Positions 1-38,719 of a DNA stretch of 38,719 bases are shown piece after piece. Where the stretch lies: NCBI GenBank assembly GCA_021775455.1, contig JAJFHU010000062.1, positions 1 to 38,719 of the forward strand. The letters are read 5' to 3'. Source of the DNA: Hyphomicrobiales bacterium. Its GTDB lineage: Bacteria; Pseudomonadota; Alphaproteobacteria; Rhizobiales; Rhizobiaceae. The stretch's first letter is position 1, and each line of letters begins with the position of its first letter. The translations under genes were made by a program, and so were the position numbers. The notes beneath the pieces were generated by a model. The model saw nothing but the letters and a program-made list of their open reading frames with translations, made no database searches and was not told the DNA's origin.

Positions 1-141
1 AACAATTCCTTTCGGTGTTTGACCTCTGCTTCAAAGGCGGCAACCAGTTCCCGTTGTTGTTCCAGAATTTTTCCGGTGCGGTTGATGCTGTCCATCAATG
101 CCATGCCGGTTCGGTCTATCAGTCGGGAATAATTGGTCATC
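1..141. repeat. Left copy of 141-bp terminal redundancy (circular closure)
   Basis: These 141 bases are identical to the last 141 of the window (38579-38719). The copy contains, on the minus strand, only the 5' part of the gene that is complete at 38311-38718, so it should not be counted as a second gene. The length equals the largest default k-mer of the MEGAHIT assembler, which fits a circular or circularly permuted genome better than a biological terminal repeat. Confidence 0.95.
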
Positions 142-4801: not shown

Positions 4802-5283
4802 AAATCCCTGACATTGTGCGCCGGTATCTTGACGGTAAAACTCAAAAAATCATGAGCCGGTGCAAACCCGATTTCCAGATTGGCGGCAGTGAAAATCCGT
4901 ATTTGCAGCGCTGGTGGCTGATACCGAGAAACCGGTTTTTCAATATCTACTTGCACCGGGTGTTGCGCGATGACGATGACCGCGCACTGCATGATCACCC
5001 TTGGGCTTCACTGTCAATTTGTGTGCGAGGACGCCTGCGGGAGCACCTGAAGGGCGGTGACAGTCGTTTTGTTGATGCAGGTCGTGTGGTTTACCGCTCC
5101 GCCTGCTTTGCTCACCGGCTGGAACTTTATGACAAGTTTGCAGTGACGATCTTTATTACAGGACCACGCGTACGCGAATGGGGTTTTCATTGTCCAAAAG
5201 AAAGCCCTGCAGGTGGTTGGCGTCACTGGAAGGAATTTACCAGCTCCGCTGATGTGGGCGAAGTAGGCCTAGTGTGTGAATGA
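4798..5283 (+). CDS. Cupin-like phage protein
   Basis: This 161-residue protein starts with GTG, overlapping the previous stop, behind CTGGAGG. The centre carries a cupin-like metal-binding pattern: RALHDHPWASLSICVRGRLR (His65 and His67) and then CFAHRLEL (His106), in a beta-rich context. Tryptophan-rich segments follow (REWGFHCPKES and WRHWKEF). Such single-domain cupins occur in phages of alphaproteobacteria, with unknown substrate. It converges with the TagO-like gene, with only 2 bases between the stops and no obvious terminator. Confidence 0.65.
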   Translation: MKIPDIVRRYLDGKTQKIMSRCKPDFQIGGSENPYLQRWWLIPRNRFFNIYLHRVLRDDDDRALHDHPWASLSICVRGRLREHLKGGDSRFVDAGRVVYRSACFAHRLELYDKFAVTIFITGPRVREWGFHCPKESPAGGWRHWKEFTSSADVGEVGLVCE

Positions 5284-5285
5284 TG

Positions 5286-5909
5286 TCACGGCTTCCAGTT
5301 ACATGCCTTCGCCAAGGGCTCAATAGAATTTCTCAAGCCAGTTACCGGAAAATTCACAGTCGAGGAACTCTCGTTGTATGGTGTGAACCGCAGCAAAAGG
5401 GTTCCAGCAGCAAACAGCTTCTTGATCAAAGGGATCGACGACCCGCCATTCCAAAGGCCCAAGGCTTCATTGTCTGTGGAGACGCGAAGGTTTTTGTTGA
5501 ACGCCTTTTGTTTGTCAATTCGCATGGTGACTCTTCCGTTACCTGCATGATCACTCATAAAAGAGCCGCTGAAATTGAAATATGCCACTGTCGTGTTTTC
5601 TCGACATTCTATGAGCAAAATCACTTGCTGTTTTTTGTTATATCGATCAGAAAAATAGTCGGCGGAATTAAGGCTCAAATATACGTTCTGGCTGTCATCG
5701 ATTTTGGAAATTACTTTGTGAATTCGCCAAGCGCCGGTGCCTTGTTTTACAGGTTCTATCTTGATTGTTTTCTTGAACAACAGGTCGTAGCAAAGCAGCC
5801 GGTCATCATCTTCTTTTTCCTTGGCACATTGAGCGCCATCGGGCTGATGAGCAAGGATACTTCCAGGCATCACAAAAAATGCGAACACAATTGCCAGAAT
5901 AATTCTCAT
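5286..5909 (-). CDS. TagO/VasI-like exported protein (moron)
   Basis: This 207-residue protein runs opposite to all surrounding early genes. It has a signal peptide (MRIILAIVFAFFVMPGSILA, cleavage likely after Ala20). The mature part fits the T6SS-associated TagO/VasI pattern: DRLLCYDLLF near the start, SKIDDSQNVYLSL, LIECRENTTVAYFNF, RVTMRID, STDNEALGLWNG, IPLIKKLF, LLLRFTPYNESSSTVNFPVT and a closing LAKACNW. Family members are periplasmic proteins tied to type VI secretion or of unknown role in phages. A GGAGG site and its own promoter (5964-5936) support independent expression, for example from a lysogen. The AT-richer composition suggests recent acquisition. Confidence 0.75.
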   Translation of the reverse strand: MRIILAIVFAFFVMPGSILAHQPDGAQCAKEKEDDDRLLCYDLLFKKTIKIEPVKQGTGAWRIHKVISKIDDSQNVYLSLNSADYFSDRYNKKQQVILLIECRENTTVAYFNFSGSFMSDHAGNGRVTMRIDKQKAFNKNLRVSTDNEALGLWNGGSSIPLIKKLFAAGTLLLRFTPYNESSSTVNFPVTGLRNSIEPLAKACNWKP

Positions 5910-5935
5910 TCAACCCTCCACAATTACTTGACGAT

Positions 5936-5964
5936 ACTTAAGCAAATTTTGTTGCTGAATTCAA
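5936..5964 (-). promoter_or_regulatory. Promoter of the TagO-like moron
   Basis: On the minus strand TTGAAT (5964-5959), 17 bases, then TTAAGT (5941-5936), in an AT-rich setting about 26 bases ahead of the ATG; GGAGG (5919-5915) serves as ribosome binding site. The match to sigma-70 is moderate. Together with the reversed orientation it marks the gene as an autonomous moron. Confidence 0.5.
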
Positions 5965-5994
5965 ATTTGACTTTTTCCTGCAAATCAGACAGCG

Positions 5995-6012
5995 TTGTGA
6001 TGCACGTCACAA
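5995..6012. promoter_or_regulatory. CRP/FNR-type palindrome
   Basis: TTGTGATGCACGTCACAA has arms TTGTGA and TCACAA in perfect dyad symmetry around six bases, matching the classical CRP consensus TGTGA-N6-TCACA exactly. It lies between the moron promoter and the structured RNA, so it could regulate either one. It is upstream of a TATACT at 6039-6044. Regulation by a host CRP-family factor is inference. Confidence 0.55.
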
Positions 6013-6022
6013 ATGGGCGTGT

Positions 6023-6229
6023 CAGGATTGGAACCCTGTATACTTCACGGCGCTCCAGCCGCGCCATTGATGCGCGGTTTTTGAGTTTCGGACTACTTGT
6101 CCGAACTTTATGGGGTGGGCATTCAGGCCGCATTAGCGGACCTGAACATGTTTCCGTGAGGCTTGTTTCGGGTAGTTCCAACCTGTTTGTTCACCCCGCC
6201 AATTCGGTATTGGAACACCGGCTTGGCGG
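6023..6229 (+). ncRNA. Candidate structured RNA / leader with repeated kissing loops
   Basis: About 200 bases upstream of the gene at 6249 are dense in hairpins. Hairpin A is CAGG-ATTGGAAC-CCTG (6023-6038). Hairpin B is CCGCCAA...TTGGCGG (6197-6203 with 6223-6229) with an inner CGGT-ATTGGAAC-ACCG (6205-6220). Both show the identical 8-base loop ATTGGAAC. Between them GTTCCAA (6175-6181) is the perfect complement of that loop. Other stems are CCGCG/CGCGG (6059-6077), CGGAC/GTCCG (6089-6103), CAGG-CCGC/GCGG-CCTG (6124-6144) and GGGGTG/CACCCC (6112-6117 with 6192-6197). The layout recalls antisense-type immunity RNAs such as P1/P7 c4, but I cannot assign a known family. Confidence 0.5.
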
Positions 6230-6248
6230 CCAATCACGGAGACTTGCA

Positions 6249-6503
6249 ATGACCGATTGTGAGAGTGGTGTAGCGCCACCAAAATATACCAGCCATTATG
6301 AAATCTACAGCCAGTTCGAAGATTGTTTTCTGCATGCCCAGGCGACCATGATGCTGCTTGGATGGATAATGTATGACGACCGTTACCCGGACCTCAAAGG
6401 CGTGCTGTCAGACCACCTGAACAAGCTCTTGAAGGAAGGCAATACGCTGTTAGGCGCAGGATTCGCACTCACAAAACCCGAGCGTGAAGGGGGTGCGGGA
6501 TGA
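6249..6503 (+). CDS. Small hypothetical protein behind the structured leader
   Basis: This 84-residue protein starts with ATG 6249, behind GGAGA at 6238-6242. The open frame continues far upstream (to 5280), but that part is antisense to the TagO-like gene and overlaps the structured region, so the short start is preferred. The product is mainly helical (EIYSQFEDCFLHAQATMMLL and LKGVLSDHLNKLLKEGNTLL). No family is recognised. It overlaps the replication gene by ATGA. Its ribosome binding site lies just after the hairpin at 6197-6229, so the RNA may control its translation. Confidence 0.55.
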   Translation: MTDCESGVAPPKYTSHYEIYSQFEDCFLHAQATMMLLGWIMYDDRYPDLKGVLSDHLNKLLKEGNTLLGAGFALTKPEREGGAG

Positions 6504-7240
6504 CTATCATACGCCGCCGTAGAAGCGAAAATTTCACGGTTGTTCCGAATGAAATCTATGATTCGGAGGCTATGTCGTTTGAAGCCAGTTCGCTCTTGGC
6601 ATATTTGTTGACAAGACCGCAAAACTGGAAGGTTCACACCAATCAGTTGAAAAAAGTGACCGGTTTTGGCCGCGATAAAGTGCAAAAACTGATGCAACAA
6701 ATTCGCGCTGCCGGGTATGCCAAAACGCAGCCAAAACAGGCTAAAAATGGCCGTTTTTCCGGTCAGGAAACAATCATCTTTGATGAGGTGCAATGTGCTG
6801 AACCGGGACCTGATTTTCAGGGGTACCGTGACGGAGAACCTGATTTACCGGAACCTGATTTGCCGTGTGACGGTAAATCAGGCCCTATAATAAGTACTGA
6901 CACTATAATAAGTACTGACTCTTTATTCCCCCCTATAATCCCCCCACCGGGGGATGAGCCTGTTTCATCAGAATTTGGTTTTGAAGAATTCTGGGCAACT
7001 TTCGCTGACAAGCGGGGTAGGCAGGCAGCGCTTCGTTTGTGGAAACGAAAACAGCTTTCGAAGATTGCAGCACAAGTGATCGACGGTGCCGCGCGCTATG
7101 CGATGTCTCGCACAAACGACAGGCGCTACTGGAAGCAAGCCCAAGGCTGGCTCAACGATGGCCGGTGGGAGGATGAACAACTGGTTCGCAAGAAAACAGC
7201 GATGGATGTGCTTCGGGAAAATGCGGGGTTTGACAGATGA
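6500..7240 (+). CDS. Replication initiator, lambda O / DnaD-like
   Basis: This 246-residue protein has a winged-helix start (residues about 8-80: VVPNEIYDSEAMSFEASSLL, then TRPQNWKVHTNQLKKV and RDKVQKLMQQIRAAGYAK) typical of phage replication initiators. Next comes a low-complexity linker (about 95-150, including the repeated IISTD) and a C-terminal domain (GFEEFWATFADKRGRQAALR, then YWKQAQGWLNDGRWED) common in DnaD-like phage replisome organisers. The linker is encoded by the repeats listed at 6808-6960, as lambda O encloses lambda ori. It should bind the origin and recruit a helicase with the products downstream. Confidence 0.8.
   Translation: MTIIRRRRSENFTVVPNEIYDSEAMSFEASSLLAYLLTRPQNWKVHTNQLKKVTGFGRDKVQKLMQQIRAAGYAKTQPKQAKNGRFSGQETIIFDEVQCAEPGPDFQGYRDGEPDLPEPDLPCDGKSGPIISTDTIISTDSLFPPIIPPPGDEPVSSEFGFEEFWATFADKRGRQAALRLWKRKQLSKIAAQVIDGAARYAMSRTNDRRYWKQAQGWLNDGRWEDEQLVRKKTAMDVLRENAGFDR
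6808..6960. other. Putative phage replication origin (iteron-like repeats)
   Basis: Three ACCTGATTT copies lie at 6808, 6838 and 6853, with an inverted AAATCAGG at 6875. Then the 17-bp unit CTATAATAAGTACTGAC occurs twice, at 6885-6901 and 6903-6919. A third CTATAAT lies in a C-rich run at 6933, and CCCC-ACC-GGGG forms a hairpin before 6955. All lie inside the initiator gene, in the segment for its linker, matching the lambda O/ori arrangement. AT-rich tandem units beside a GC hairpin suit an unwinding element, though no replication data exist. Confidence 0.6.
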
Positions 7241-8765: not shown

Positions 8766-8821
8766 TGATGGCGGATGACAAGATCGACGAGGAATACACC
8801 CTGTGTGAGGAAGAAAATTGA
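8765..8821 (+). CDS. Tiny leader-like ORF before the NusG-like gene
   Basis: This 18-codon acidic frame starts at the TGATG overlap with the upstream gene and ends over the TTG start of the NusG-like gene. Eight of its residues are Asp or Glu. It may only serve to carry ribosomes to the weak TTG start (translational coupling). A real peptide is uncertain. Confidence 0.3.
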   Translation: MMADDKIDEEYTLCEEEN

Positions 8822-9501
8822 AAAACGTCATCAGGCCGAAATATATTCCGAGCGGTCAACGCGGAACCATCAAGCCGACGCAGCCGGATGATCCTCTGGA
8901 TGGCAGGCTTATTGATCAACAATGGTTCAATCTGAAATGGTTTGTCGCAAAGGCGAGATCACGTCCAGCAGGCTCTGTGCGGCGTTACTTCGACAGGGAT
9001 GACGAACGCCAGATTACCGAGGCAGATAGCGCCTACATAGCGCTTAATACGCTCGGAGTGCCGACATTTATTGTTGAGGAATGGGTGAAGGTCCGAGGAT
9101 CCAAGGGAAATAACGGAAACAACGGTCGGCGTCGCTACAAGCGAGTACCAGTATTTCCCGGGTTTGTGTTCATTGCCATCAAGGACGAGCCCGCGCTCGA
9201 ACACGTCCACAACTGCCGACACATTGACAAGTTGCTAGGCTATGGCATAGAGCCGCATCAAGTCCCGTTGAGCGCGATGCTGATGTTGTTCACTTACCAT
9301 AATCAGCATGTCGGCAAGCCGAAAACGAATCAGGAAAACTTCAAGCCCGGTGACATTATTGAAGTCCTGGACGGACCGTGGCAGTTTTTCGAGGCAATCG
9401 TTAACAGGCAGAAAAGCGATGAACGCATTGAAATCCTTTTAGAAATGTTTGGCACACATCGTCCTGTTGAGATTAGTCTTGACTCAATCCAGAAGATTTG
9501 A
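8818..9501 (+). CDS. Phage NusG-like transcription factor (NGN-KOW)
   Basis: This 227-residue protein starts with TTG behind GAGGAAG. Residues about 38-150 resemble the NGN domain (WFNLKWFVAKARSR, YIALNTLGVPTFIVEEWVKV, then RVPVFPGFVFIAIKDEPALE). Residues about 175-227 resemble a KOW domain (FKPGDIIEVLDGPWQFFEAI, LLEMFGTHRPVEISLDSI). An insert rich in Gly, Asn and Arg separates the NGN strands. NusG paralogues such as RfaH bind RNA polymerase at its clamp and reduce pausing and termination. As the last early gene before terminase, it is the best candidate for the late antiterminator, replacing lambda Q. That role is inference. Confidence 0.8.
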   Translation: MKNVIRPKYIPSGQRGTIKPTQPDDPLDGRLIDQQWFNLKWFVAKARSRPAGSVRRYFDRDDERQITEADSAYIALNTLGVPTFIVEEWVKVRGSKGNNGNNGRRRYKRVPVFPGFVFIAIKDEPALEHVHNCRHIDKLLGYGIEPHQVPLSAMLMLFTYHNQHVGKPKTNQENFKPGDIIEVLDGPWQFFEAIVNRQKSDERIEILLEMFGTHRPVEISLDSIQKI

Positions 9502-32390: not shown

Positions 32391-33482
32391 TCACATTGCC
32401 TTTTTCTTTAATAATTTCAATGCGCTATCGTTATGTCTGCGCATGGCGTGTACGAGTTTTGTACGGATTGCCTGGTTGACTATCTTGCGGGAATCCTCGG
32501 CATGCGAGTAAGTATTCAACAGGATCTGCGGGTCTTTCCAACCTCCAGCATCGGCTCCCGTTGCTGGATCAATACCCAGGCGAACTACCACTTCTGTTCC
32601 AAATCCGTGCCGCCCGGCCGCATGAGGCATGATGGGTAGTATCTTCGCCCGTTCACATGCTCGTTTCCAGCTTCCGTACAAATGATGGCGCTGTTTAAAT
32701 CCGAATAACCTGCCGTGTCTGGTTTCCAGGGACATTAACTCGGCAGTCAGTTCAGGGATGAGCTCAATCCATTCATCCTCATGGCCTTTTGCACCAGGAC
32801 AATAAACAAGATTTTCATTTAGGCGGGAGAGATCACCGGAATCATTGATGCTCAGGCTCTGGCCGATCCGTCGACCTGCCGTGTACATGAACATCGCCAG
32901 TGCTCCGATCCTTGGGCTTGCTTCAGCCCTGAACTTCATGAGCCAATCCATATCCGCAGGGATCTTCGGGATCCTGCTTTTCTTGCCACGCAGGCGGTCT
33001 TGTTCCACGCGTTGCTTGTCGCTGTAGGCTTTGACGCGAATGGGTGGGCATTTCCCCAATTCGTGAGCGTGATTGATCACAGAACGTACAGGGCTTACTA
33101 CTTGCCGGTGCCACGTATCGGTCGATGCTTCAGGGTAAACGACCTTGCCCAGTTCCTTGATTTGCAGGGGAGTGATCTTTTTTAAATAGTCGTCACCGAG
33201 GTGGGGCAGGATTTTACTCAGGTAGTTGGCCTCGGCGGGCTTTGGTGTGTAAAGCAGGATAGCATCAGAGAATGTTAGTCCGATTTCCTCTCCCGTATAT
33301 TCTTCAATGAGATTACGTTTGATTGCTTTTTGTTCGAAGCGTTTTTTGATTTCTTCTGCTTTGGCTTCCGGCAACGCTGAAGGTATTTCGAGGCTTTGGC
33401 GGTAGTATCCACAGCCGGGGATTTCGTCGATCCGGCCTTTGATCCACCACCATTTACCCCGTTTGTAGACTTCGAGTGGCAT
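32391..33482 (-). CDS. int: Tyrosine integrase
   Basis: This 363-residue protein starts behind GGAGGG. The N-terminal arm-binding and core-binding regions precede the catalytic domain: the first Arg in MYTAGRRIGQSLSI, the box II HAAGRHGFGTEVV, then GGWKDPQILLNTYSHAE with the nucleophile Tyr. The HAAGRHGF variant is common among alphaproteobacterial phage integrases. It integrates at the adjacent tRNA-Ser core. The 5' part overlaps the excisionase-like gene by 208 bases. Confidence 0.95.
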   Translation of the reverse strand: MPLEVYKRGKWWWIKGRIDEIPGCGYYRQSLEIPSALPEAKAEEIKKRFEQKAIKRNLIEEYTGEEIGLTFSDAILLYTPKPAEANYLSKILPHLGDDYLKKITPLQIKELGKVVYPEASTDTWHRQVVSPVRSVINHAHELGKCPPIRVKAYSDKQRVEQDRLRGKKSRIPKIPADMDWLMKFRAEASPRIGALAMFMYTAGRRIGQSLSINDSGDLSRLNENLVYCPGAKGHEDEWIELIPELTAELMSLETRHGRLFGFKQRHHLYGSWKRACERAKILPIMPHAAGRHGFGTEVVVRLGIDPATGADAGGWKDPQILLNTYSHAEDSRKIVNQAIRTKLVHAMRRHNDSALKLLKKKAM

Positions 33483-33688
33483 TGCTCACCCTCCTGCAAG
33501 ATGCGATCCACATGCTCCGGGAGCAACAAAACCGCGTTTCCATACTCAATACAAGCCCCAAGCGACCGCGCATCACTTCGCAACCTACGCGCTGAAAGCT
33601 TTACACCAAACTTTTCCTTAAATTCCTGAACCACCATTTCAGGTGATCGCGCTGTGGACAGAATGGATTCTTGAGCTTTAGGCATCAT
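33275..33688 (-). CDS. Excisionase-like DNA-binding protein overlapping int
   Basis: This protein has 137 residues (or 136 from the second ATG). The first 65 are a small folded domain (EMVVQEFKEKFGVKLSARRL, then SDARSLGACIEYGNAVLLLP) with the look of a MerR/Xis-type HTH. The remaining 70 are Lys/Ser/Asn-rich and encoded in the same DNA as the integrase start, in another frame. Position between resolvase and int and the basic character fit a recombination directionality factor. The basic tail may be a by-product of the integrase sequence. Confidence 0.65.
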   Translation of the reverse strand: MMPKAQESILSTARSPEMVVQEFKEKFGVKLSARRLRSDARSLGACIEYGNAVLLLPEHVDRILQEGEQCHSKSTNGVNGGGSKAGSTKSPAVDTTAKASKYLQRCRKPKQKKSKNASNKKQSNVISLKNIRERKSD

Positions 33689-34449
33689 TCCAAACTCTCC
33701 GTTTCCTTAATGATTTGATTGAGTCGTCGTATCGAAACACCTTCCGCCTTCGCGCATTCTTCCAGCGCTTTCATACGCAATTTTTTGAACTCAATTTTGC
33801 CCTGCTTTCTGGCTTGTTTGACCTTCCCGCGCTCTCCCGCAAAGTGGTTGAACAATGTGGCTGTCGACTTGTACCCGGCGCGTTCTGTAATTTGTCTATT
33901 GGTGAGTATTGGGTTCCAGATATCAATCATCATGCGAATTCGCTTTTCGCCGTGAATTTCACTTGGTTGTCCAAATTTCTTACCCTGCCGCTTGGCTTCC
34001 GCCATTCCGGCAATGGTTCGTTCGCGGGTTAGGTCGCGCTCGTATTGGGCAAATGCAAACATGATGTGCAACATCAGCATTCCCGCCGCACTATCTAAAT
34101 CCAAGCGTTCTTTTAAACTGACCAGTTGAACGCCGTTTTTGCAAAAATGTTGAACGGTGGTTGCCATGTCGGCAATGTCCCTGCCCAGGCGGTCCAGCCG
34201 CCAAACAATCAGCTTCACTCCCTCCCGACAGATGTCTTTCAGGTTTTCAAATACCGGGCGAGTTTTGCGGGTAGATTGTTTTTCCAGATAAATACGATCA
34301 CAACCAGCATCCTTTAATGCGGCAATCTGCAAGTTCAATTCCTGATCGTCTGTGCTAACGCGAGCGTAGCCAATGACACGGCAATCAGCCGGAAACTTGT
34401 AGTTTCGCTGAATGTAGGTATCAAACTCTGTCCATGTCGCTGTTGTCAT
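33685..34449 (-). CDS. Serine recombinase (resolvase/invertase)
   Basis: This 254-residue protein has catalytic Ser32 in VIGYARVSTDDQELNLQIAA, then LIVWRLDRLGRDIADM and MLMLHIMFAFAQYERDLTRE, which identify the resolvase/invertase family. The C-terminal HTH (LTNRQITERAGYKSTATLFN) is followed by an extra basic helix-rich tail (KLRMKALEECAKAEGVSIRR) not seen in short invertases. It overlaps the excisionase-like gene by ATGATG. A second recombinase beside a tyrosine integrase may invert a segment or resolve dimers. Confidence 0.9.
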   Translation of the reverse strand: MTTATWTEFDTYIQRNYKFPADCRVIGYARVSTDDQELNLQIAALKDAGCDRIYLEKQSTRKTRPVFENLKDICREGVKLIVWRLDRLGRDIADMATTVQHFCKNGVQLVSLKERLDLDSAAGMLMLHIMFAFAQYERDLTRERTIAGMAEAKRQGKKFGQPSEIHGEKRIRMMIDIWNPILTNRQITERAGYKSTATLFNHFAGERGKVKQARKQGKIEFKKLRMKALEECAKAEGVSIRRLNQIIKETESLE

Positions 34450-38314: not shown

Positions 38315-38718
38315 CGGGATGCCCCTGCCTTTTCAGTTGGAAAAAACATGGCAGGAGCATCCTTGTCTGGGAGGGAGGCGGACAATTGTTGTTTGGAATT
38401 CCGGATTGGTGGTTTGGTGCGTCTTGCCCGCTTGATAGCGGTAAAGGGGAAGATGTGACCTTCAGTTGTTTGCGCATGTGTTTCATCGTAATTGACCATT
38501 GAAACCTGATGCCAACCGGACTTTACGCGTATCCAAGATCCATCAGCAATTTCGTAAAGGCCATCCTTGATCCAGCGAAACAATTCCTTTCGGTGTTTGA
38601 CCTCTGCTTCAAAGGCGGCAACCAGTTCCCGTTGTTGTTCCAGAATTTTTCCGGTGCGGTTGATGCTGTCCATCAATGCCATGCCGGTTCGGTCTATCAG
38701 TCGGGAATAATTGGTCAT
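38311..38718 (-). CDS. First leftward early protein
   Basis: This 135-residue product starts at ATG 38718, whose upstream region and PL lie at the beginning of the window across the circular junction. A helical start (RLIDRTGMALMDSINRTGKI, then EQQRELVAAFEAEVKHRKEL) is followed by a small beta part (YEIADGSWIRVKSGWHQVSM). No family is recognised. As the first PL gene it may control early steps. Confidence 0.65.
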   Translation of the reverse strand: MTNYSRLIDRTGMALMDSINRTGKILEQQRELVAAFEAEVKHRKELFRWIKDGLYEIADGSWIRVKSGWHQVSMVNYDETHAQTTEGHIFPFTAIKRARRTKPPIRNSKQQLSASLPDKDAPAMFFPTEKAGASR

Positions 38719-38719
38719 C
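38579..38719. repeat. Right copy of 141-bp terminal redundancy
   Basis: Identical to bases 1-141. Joining the copies restores one circle of 38,578 bp and puts PL (219-248) directly upstream of the gene at 38718. Confidence 0.95.

What the first reader, a model, noticed from the sequence alone, without database searches (positions are those of the whole stretch)
6023..6229. Structured RNA with two identical ATTGGAAC loops and an anti-loop: possible new c4-like regulator
Two separate hairpins with different stems display the same 8-base loop ATTGGAAC, and GTTCCAA between them is its complement, so either loop can pair with it, but not both. Four further stems lie in between. The second hairpin ends 8 bases before the ribosome binding site of the 6249 gene. 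This looks like a switch in which loop choice controls translation or RNA processing, similar in logic to the P1/P7 c4 antisense RNA but with different length and sequence. Compensated stems around a constant loop argue for RNA, not protein, selection.
Basis: partly seen in the sequence, partly recalled or inferred. Interest (0 to 1): 0.8.

Follow-up and report, generated by a model that had tools for sequence, protein, structure and literature searches.

The report
Divergent C4-type antisense RNA switch
A phage-like contig carries a divergent copy of a known RNA switch (as in phages P1, P4 and Gifsy-1), in which a small antisense RNA can hide the start site of an operon and an upstream RNA copies both of its targets; here the operon appears to include a replication-starter gene.

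Summary
ATTGGAAC sits in hairpin loops at 6027-6034 and 6209-6216, and GTTCCAA at 6175-6181 is complementary to both. Sub-threshold Rfam matches cover the stretch: isrK at 6002-6082 (E 2.8e-7) and C4 antisense RNA at 6106-6203 (E 2.3e-5). The order is that of the a1-b1 / c4 / a2-b2 leader annotated in phage P1; P4 and Gifsy-1 share it. The sites change together among relatives: 47 of 81 parsed C4 loci keep all four complementarities of 6 nt or more, against at most 3 of 81 in any of 200 flank swaps. So this is a divergent member of a known module, not a new class. Best reading: C4 hides the start of an 84-residue ORF overlapping a replication-initiator-like gene by 4 bases; the IsrK-like leader is a C4 decoy (as Gifsy-1 suggests) or a cis termination target (as P4 seqA). 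Unusual: a replication gene is controlled, as in P4, but on a contig with its own head and tail genes. No RNA was measured.

The parts
6002..6082 (+). IsrK / a1b1-like leader RNA with two hairpins and an intrinsic-terminator-like hairpin (6057-6079)
   Evidence: Rfam RF01394 40.5 bits, E 2.8e-7, below gathering 50; terminator-like site
6027..6034 (+). a1: loop ATTGGAAC, upstream copy of the first C4 target
   Evidence: direct reading; complementary to 6175-6181; corresponding site in other C4 loci
6044..6050 (+). b1: TTCACGG, upstream copy of the second (Shine-Dalgarno) target; followed by CGC instead of AG and a start codon
6106..6203 (+). C4 antisense RNA (divergent)
   Evidence: Rfam RF01695 37.0 bits, E 2.3e-5, below gathering 45; consensus structure of 28 C4s that include this one
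6154..6159 (+). C4 antisense site to b (CCGTGA)
   Evidence: complementary to TCACGG at 6045-6050 and 6234-6239
6175..6181 (+). C4 antisense site to a (GTTCCAA)
   Evidence: complementary to TTGGAAC at 6028-6034 and 6210-6216
6209..6216 (+). a2: loop ATTGGAAC of the target hairpin
6234..6240 (+). b2: TCACGGA, overlaps the Shine-Dalgarno GGAG (6238-6241)
6249..6503 (+). 84-aa leader ORF, in the position of icd of P1; no family match
6500..7240 (+). replication-initiator-like gene, 4-base overlap with the 84-aa ORF
   Evidence: phrog_270 E 2.8e-20; no Pfam or NCBIfam match; C-terminal part 49% identical to the second gene behind C4 in L004

Best explanation
The stretch is a C4-type leader: a1-b1 copy of the targets (IsrK-like), terminator, C4 antisense RNA, a2-b2 target, small ORF, then a replication-initiator-like gene. 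Shown: anatomy, complementarities, and co-variation of the corresponding sites among related loci. Inferred: a promoter upstream of 6002 makes mostly a short IsrK-like RNA; read-through makes C4 plus mRNA. C4 pairs through GTTCCAA with loop a2 and through TTTCCGTGA with the Shine-Dalgarno b2, so the 84-aa ORF is not translated and the overlapping replication gene stays silent by lost coupling and perhaps Rho-dependent polarity (P1 precedent, recalled). The IsrK-like RNA carries both target sites and competes for C4; when transcription rises, decoy exceeds C4 and the operon is translated. The stated confidence is for C4 repressing this operon; I give the free-decoy step alone about 0.5.
For: Two Rfam families match in the right order. 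The P1 record annotates a1 and b1 (putative), c4, a2, b2 and icd overlapping ant1 by 4 bases in the same layout. P4 and Gifsy-1 regions match C4 and isrK over the cut-offs; P1 matches C4 and c4-a1b1 over them. I took 96 C4 loci from 55 genomes and one viral contig; 81 (49 genomes and the contig) could be parsed. Exact complements of 6 nt or more among the 81: a upstream 75, a downstream 67, b upstream 66, b downstream 61, all four 47; the largest values in 200 flank swaps were 17, 14, 37, 24 and 3. The window's own sites are specific: their complements occur in the flanks of 1, 1, 7 and 0 of the 80 other parsed loci (a up, a down, b up, b down). C4 stem: 22 of 28 predicted pairs have a compensated change in at least one of 28 sequences, the window included. 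L004 has isrK and C4 over the cut-offs, then a 75-aa ORF overlapping a replication initiator by 4 bases. In Gifsy-1, short IsrK in trans raised anrP translation 139-fold, and IsrK with G28A or G31A did not (PMC4825925, section 6); by my count on the Rfam alignment these bases lie in the a1 loop.
Against: Both Rfam scores are below the curated cut-offs, and whole-genome searches with RF01695 did not list the window's own C4 at all. No transcript, processing or regulation was measured. The scan found no sigma-70-like promoter ahead of 6002. A strict terminator test found one in 39 of 81 loci, so a separate short decoy RNA may not be general. Two-strand folding gives C4 with the decoy -76.5 kcal/mol against -71.0 apart, but C4 with the target -59.1 against -59.1 apart, that is no predicted gain; the method cannot model loop-loop contacts. 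In Gifsy-1 constitutive STnc1160 (the C4 position) did not prevent IsrK growth arrest but made it more pronounced (PMC4825925, section 21), and double mutants did not restore full repression. Six replication-gene relatives other than L004 (L005-L007, L370-L372) were searched in the stretches held and none has a C4 above 12 bits.
Confidence: 0.72

Rival explanations
1. P4-type termination control: C4 pairs with a1 and a2 on the nascent transcript and causes early transcription termination, and the upstream site is a cis target (seqA) rather than a free decoy. (Partly compatible with the best explanation; it differs in the step that is blocked and in the role of a1-b1.)
For: P4 has the same four sites and, as described in PMC4825925 section 21, its CI RNA terminates transcription through seqA and seqC and so prevents expression of replication genes; here too a replication gene follows. 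In the Gifsy-1 reporter, a1-loop mutations in cis (G28A, G31A) raised translation.
Against: b2 overlaps a good Shine-Dalgarno, and the complement of the C4 b site is found downstream in 61 of 81 loci, which points to a translational step as well.
Confidence: 0.4
2. Cis switch within one mRNA, with no free C4: a1 or a2 pairs with GTTCCAA in the same molecule.
For: The minimum-energy fold of 6010-6260 pairs a1 with GTTCCAA (6023-6038 with 6169-6185); the structure A/B model of Gifsy-1 (PMC4825925, section 21).
Against: The middle segment has the conserved C4 shape with compensated stems, and C4 of P1 and CI of P4 are described as separate antisense RNAs (passages of PMC12197685, and PMC8198154; PMC4825925 section 21).
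Confidence: 0.2
3. Coding: the open frame 5280-6503 is a real 407-aa protein and the repeats are incidental.
For: The frame is open through the whole stretch; 27 of 79 C4 loci are also open there.
Against: 52 of 79 loci, L004 among them, have in-frame stops; the frame runs antisense over a VasI-like gene; the 407-aa frame has no Pfam or PHROG match.
Confidence: 0.02

Closest known systems
Phage P1 immI (c4, icd, ant1)
   Same: a1 and b1 upstream, c4, a2 and b2 ahead of the first gene, small ORF overlapping the next gene by 4 bases
   Different: Downstream gene is an antirepressor in P1, a replication-initiator-like gene here; the sequence of the sites differs
Satellite P4 immunity (seqA, CI RNA with seqB, seqC)
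   Same: Same four-site layout and C4 and isrK matches over the cut-offs; controls replication genes (PMC4825925 section 21)
   Different: P4 is a satellite (recalled); this contig has its own terminase, portal, major head and tail genes
Gifsy-1 isrK-orf45-anrP
   Same: isrK, then C4, then target sites and ribosome binding site
   Different: Antirepressor-like cargo and Salmonella host in Gifsy-1 (PMC4825925)
Rfam RF03163 c4-a1b1 (motif named in Weinberg 2010, PMC2864571; only the table row seen, in passages)
   Same: Match at the upstream a1 hairpin, over the cut-off in P1 and Gifsy-1 and below it in P4 and L004
   Different: No RF03163 match was listed for the window

Membership tests
C4-type module (a1b1 - c4 - a2b2) | Antisense RNA with basal stem and two hairpins, one carrying the anti-b site, and the anti-a site single stranded | tested here: met
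   Aligned with 27 other C4s and consensus fold; its own fold shows the same parts, though the anti-b loop is partly closed
C4-type module (a1b1 - c4 - a2b2) | Two complementary targets around the ribosome binding site downstream | tested here: met
   a2 6209-6216 and b2 6234-6240
C4-type module (a1b1 - c4 - a2b2) | Both targets repeated upstream of the antisense RNA | tested here: met
   a1 6027-6034 and b1 6044-6050
C4-type module (a1b1 - c4 - a2b2) | Processed stable RNA that represses in trans | not testable with these tools
   no RNA data
Rfam RF01695 C4 as a formal entry | Score at or above the gathering cut-off of 45 bits | tested here: not met
   37.0 bits, E 2.3e-5; nothing over any cut-off in the whole-window scan. 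It is therefore not claimed as a formal RF01695 hit, only as a divergent relative
Rfam RF01394 isrK as a formal entry | Score at or above the gathering cut-off of 50 bits | tested here: not met
   40.5 bits, E 2.8e-7
P1 immI operon | Antirepressor gene downstream | tested here: not met
   First gene has no family; second gene matches replication initiation families
P4 immunity | Replication gene in the controlled operon | tested here: met
   By sequence only: phrog_270 E 2.8e-20 for 6500-7240; function and control not tested

The most novel reading that the evidence does not exclude
In this phage the C4 module is a direct replication switch, and possibly an antisense copy-number control for an extrachromosomal (plasmid-like) phage: C4 holds down the replication initiator, and the IsrK-like decoy, which copies both target sites, sets the threshold. 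The same decoy principle would then hold for C4 modules in general, where both sites co-vary upstream and downstream.
Probability: 0.2. Interest if true: 0.6.

Novelty: new member of a known kind. Interest (0 to 1): 0.35.

Why it matters
It extends a studied RNA switch to a divergent phage where the Rfam cut-offs miss it, and places it ahead of a replication gene on a contig that is not a P4-like satellite. The survey gives comparative support that the upstream leader (IsrK of Salmonella, seqA of P4, a1b1 of P1) is one element that copies both C4 targets, each co-varying with C4. That makes the role of the upstream copy, marked only 'putative' in the P1 record, testable by matched mutations.

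Tried and rejected
Rejected: a brand-new class (Rfam matches); a coding explanation; a cis-only switch as first choice. That the host is an alphaproteobacterium, perhaps Rhizobiaceae, is my guess from the kin list's genome sizes and is not shown; the report does not rest on it.

Limits of the survey: the 96 C4 loci are the window, 6 loci, and 89 of the places listed (a list that is itself cut). 15 of 96 were dropped because the pattern that picks the antisense site failed, and some of the 81 kept were mis-parsed (for example L018, L298, L302), which lowers the real counts. The loci are related to each other; the 81 hold 80 distinct antisense pairs, and the 47 with all four sites come from 34 genomes or contigs. 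34 of 81 lack at least one of the four sites at the 6-nt bar. isrK alone is a weak marker: it matched 9 of 385 class genomes, and of the 10 isrK loci other than the window's, 5 had a C4 beside it and 5 did not. A second set of 20 loci (13, P1, P4, Gifsy-1, and 4 of the 19, whose pattern fixes part of the loop) gave 17 parsed, 15 of 17 with all four runs of 5 or more, a weaker bar. My C4 model R1 was built with the window in it, so its window score is no independent evidence. Recalled, from no call: Rho-dependent polarity in P1, RNase P processing, P4 being a satellite.

Full report
What is there. The stretch 6010-6260 folds better than all 200 shuffles. Related loci pointed to a second set of three: TTCACGG at 6044-6050, CCGTGA at 6154-6159 and TCACGGA at 6234-6240; the last overlaps the Shine-Dalgarno GGAG of the ATG at 6249. 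In 5000 shuffles of the flanks none reached all four complementary runs.

Identity. A permissive Rfam scan of 5880-6560 gives isrK at 6002-6082 (40.5 bits, E 2.8e-7) and C4 antisense RNA at 6106-6203 (37.0 bits, E 2.3e-5), both below the curated cut-offs; the default scan of the window gives nothing, and whole-genome searches with the C4 family did not list this place. The P1 record annotates this order: a1 and b1 target sites (called putative), c4, a2 and b2 sites, then icd, which overlaps ant1 by 4 bases. P4 and Gifsy-1 regions match C4 and isrK over the cut-offs; the c4-a1b1 family lies on the same leader as isrK in P1, P4 and Gifsy-1, below its cut-off in P4, and isrK is below its cut-off in P1. 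All three carry the same two sets of sites.

Co-variation. C4 was found in 61 of 398 genomes of the phylum sample, in 59 over the cut-off. I took 96 C4 loci (55 genomes and one viral contig); 81 could be parsed (49 genomes and the contig). Exact complements of at least 6 nt to the C4 antisense sites were found upstream for a in 75 and b in 66, downstream for a in 67 and b in 61, all four in 47 of 81. With flanks swapped between loci the highest values in 200 trials were 17, 37, 14, 24 and 3 in that order, and the means 7.6, 24.9, 7.7, 15.8 and 0.3. Examples differ from the window by compensated changes in all three places: TTAGAAG in L004, TTGGCGA in L008, TTAGCAG in L012. The C4 body itself has 22 of 28 predicted pairs with a compensated change in at least one of 28 sequences, the window among them. 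This argues for selection on RNA pairing. The open frame is not kept: 52 of 79 loci have stops in it.

What it controls. The 84-aa ORF found no relative in viral contigs and no family. It overlaps a 246-aa gene by 4 bases, and that gene matches replication initiation families (phrog_270, E 2.8e-20) though no Pfam or NCBIfam model. L004, a viral contig, has isrK and C4 over the cut-offs, a 75-aa ORF and a replication initiator with the same 4-base overlap; the two initiators are 49% identical over 125 aligned positions, the small ORFs are not clearly related. Six other relatives of the initiator have no C4 in the stretches held. Behind other C4s the genes differ: of 48 proteins scanned (46 behind other C4s and the window's two), 7 match Bro-N, 3 AntA, 3 Rha, 2 DUF3077, 2 HTH_35, and one each P22_AR_N, KilA-N, KilAC (ANT), SymE and HTH_36.

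Mechanism. From the precedents, C4 made by read-through pairs with a2 and b2 and blocks translation; the next gene falls silent by coupling. The upstream leader repeats both targets but b1 is followed by CGC instead of AG and a start codon, so it looks like a target copy that is not a start site. In Gifsy-1 short IsrK in trans raises translation of the read-through mRNA 139-fold, and IsrK with G28A or G31A does not (PMC4825925, section 6); counting on the Rfam alignment both bases lie in the a1 loop. The same paper describes P4 seqA and seqC as targets of CI RNA for transcription termination, and reports a result against simple titration (section 21). Two-strand folding here predicts pairing of C4 with the decoy (5.5 kcal/mol gain) but none with the target, by a method that cannot model loop-loop contacts. 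I therefore keep decoy and cis-termination as close rivals.

Surroundings. The contig has terminase, portal, major head, head-tail adaptor, tape measure and tail genes, an integrase match, a DNA invertase match and a weak repressor-like match. Its first and last 141 bases are identical, which fits a circular molecule or a terminal repeat.

Novelty. Paper searches for C4 antisense RNA, IsrK, C4 with sponge, seqA/seqB/seqC, C4 with alphaproteobacterial replication genes, STnc1160, P4 CI RNA and c4-a1b1 showed the 2010 motif listing (PMC2864571) and the 2016 IsrK paper (PMC4825925) as the closest; only open-licence papers are held. I file this as a new, divergent member of a known kind.

Noticed in passing
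window 1-141 and 38579-38719: The first and last 141 bases are identical, so the contig is a circular molecule or has a direct terminal repeat.
   Followed up: partly
window 5286-5909 (-): A VasI-like gene (type VI secretion-associated family PF11319; phrog_1848; below the NCBIfam cut-off) lies just upstream of the module on the other strand.
   Followed up: no
window 8818-9501 (+): A gene matching phrog_6386 (transcription antiterminator) and, below cut-off, NusG/RfaH models, downstream of the replication region.
   Followed up: no
genomes G523, G554, G568, G655, G701, G715, G723: Ten C4 matches each, which is all of the ten candidates scored per genome, so C4 modules look strikingly multi-copy in some genomes.
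   Followed up: no
L365, L368, L274: Rfam isrK (RF01394) and c4-a1b1 (RF03163) overlap on the same leader in P4, P1 and Gifsy-1, so the two families look like one element.
   Followed up: partly
27 of 79 C4 loci: The frame of the first gene stays open through isrK-C4-target in 27 of 79 loci, the window included; no chance expectation was computed.
   Followed up: no
window 33685-34449 (-) and 32391-33482 (-): A DNA invertase-like gene beside an integrase match.
   Followed up: no
window 6082-6104: An extra hairpin (TTCGGAC...GTCCGAA) between the terminator and C4; by eye similar hairpins are in L004, L017 and L018.
   Followed up: no
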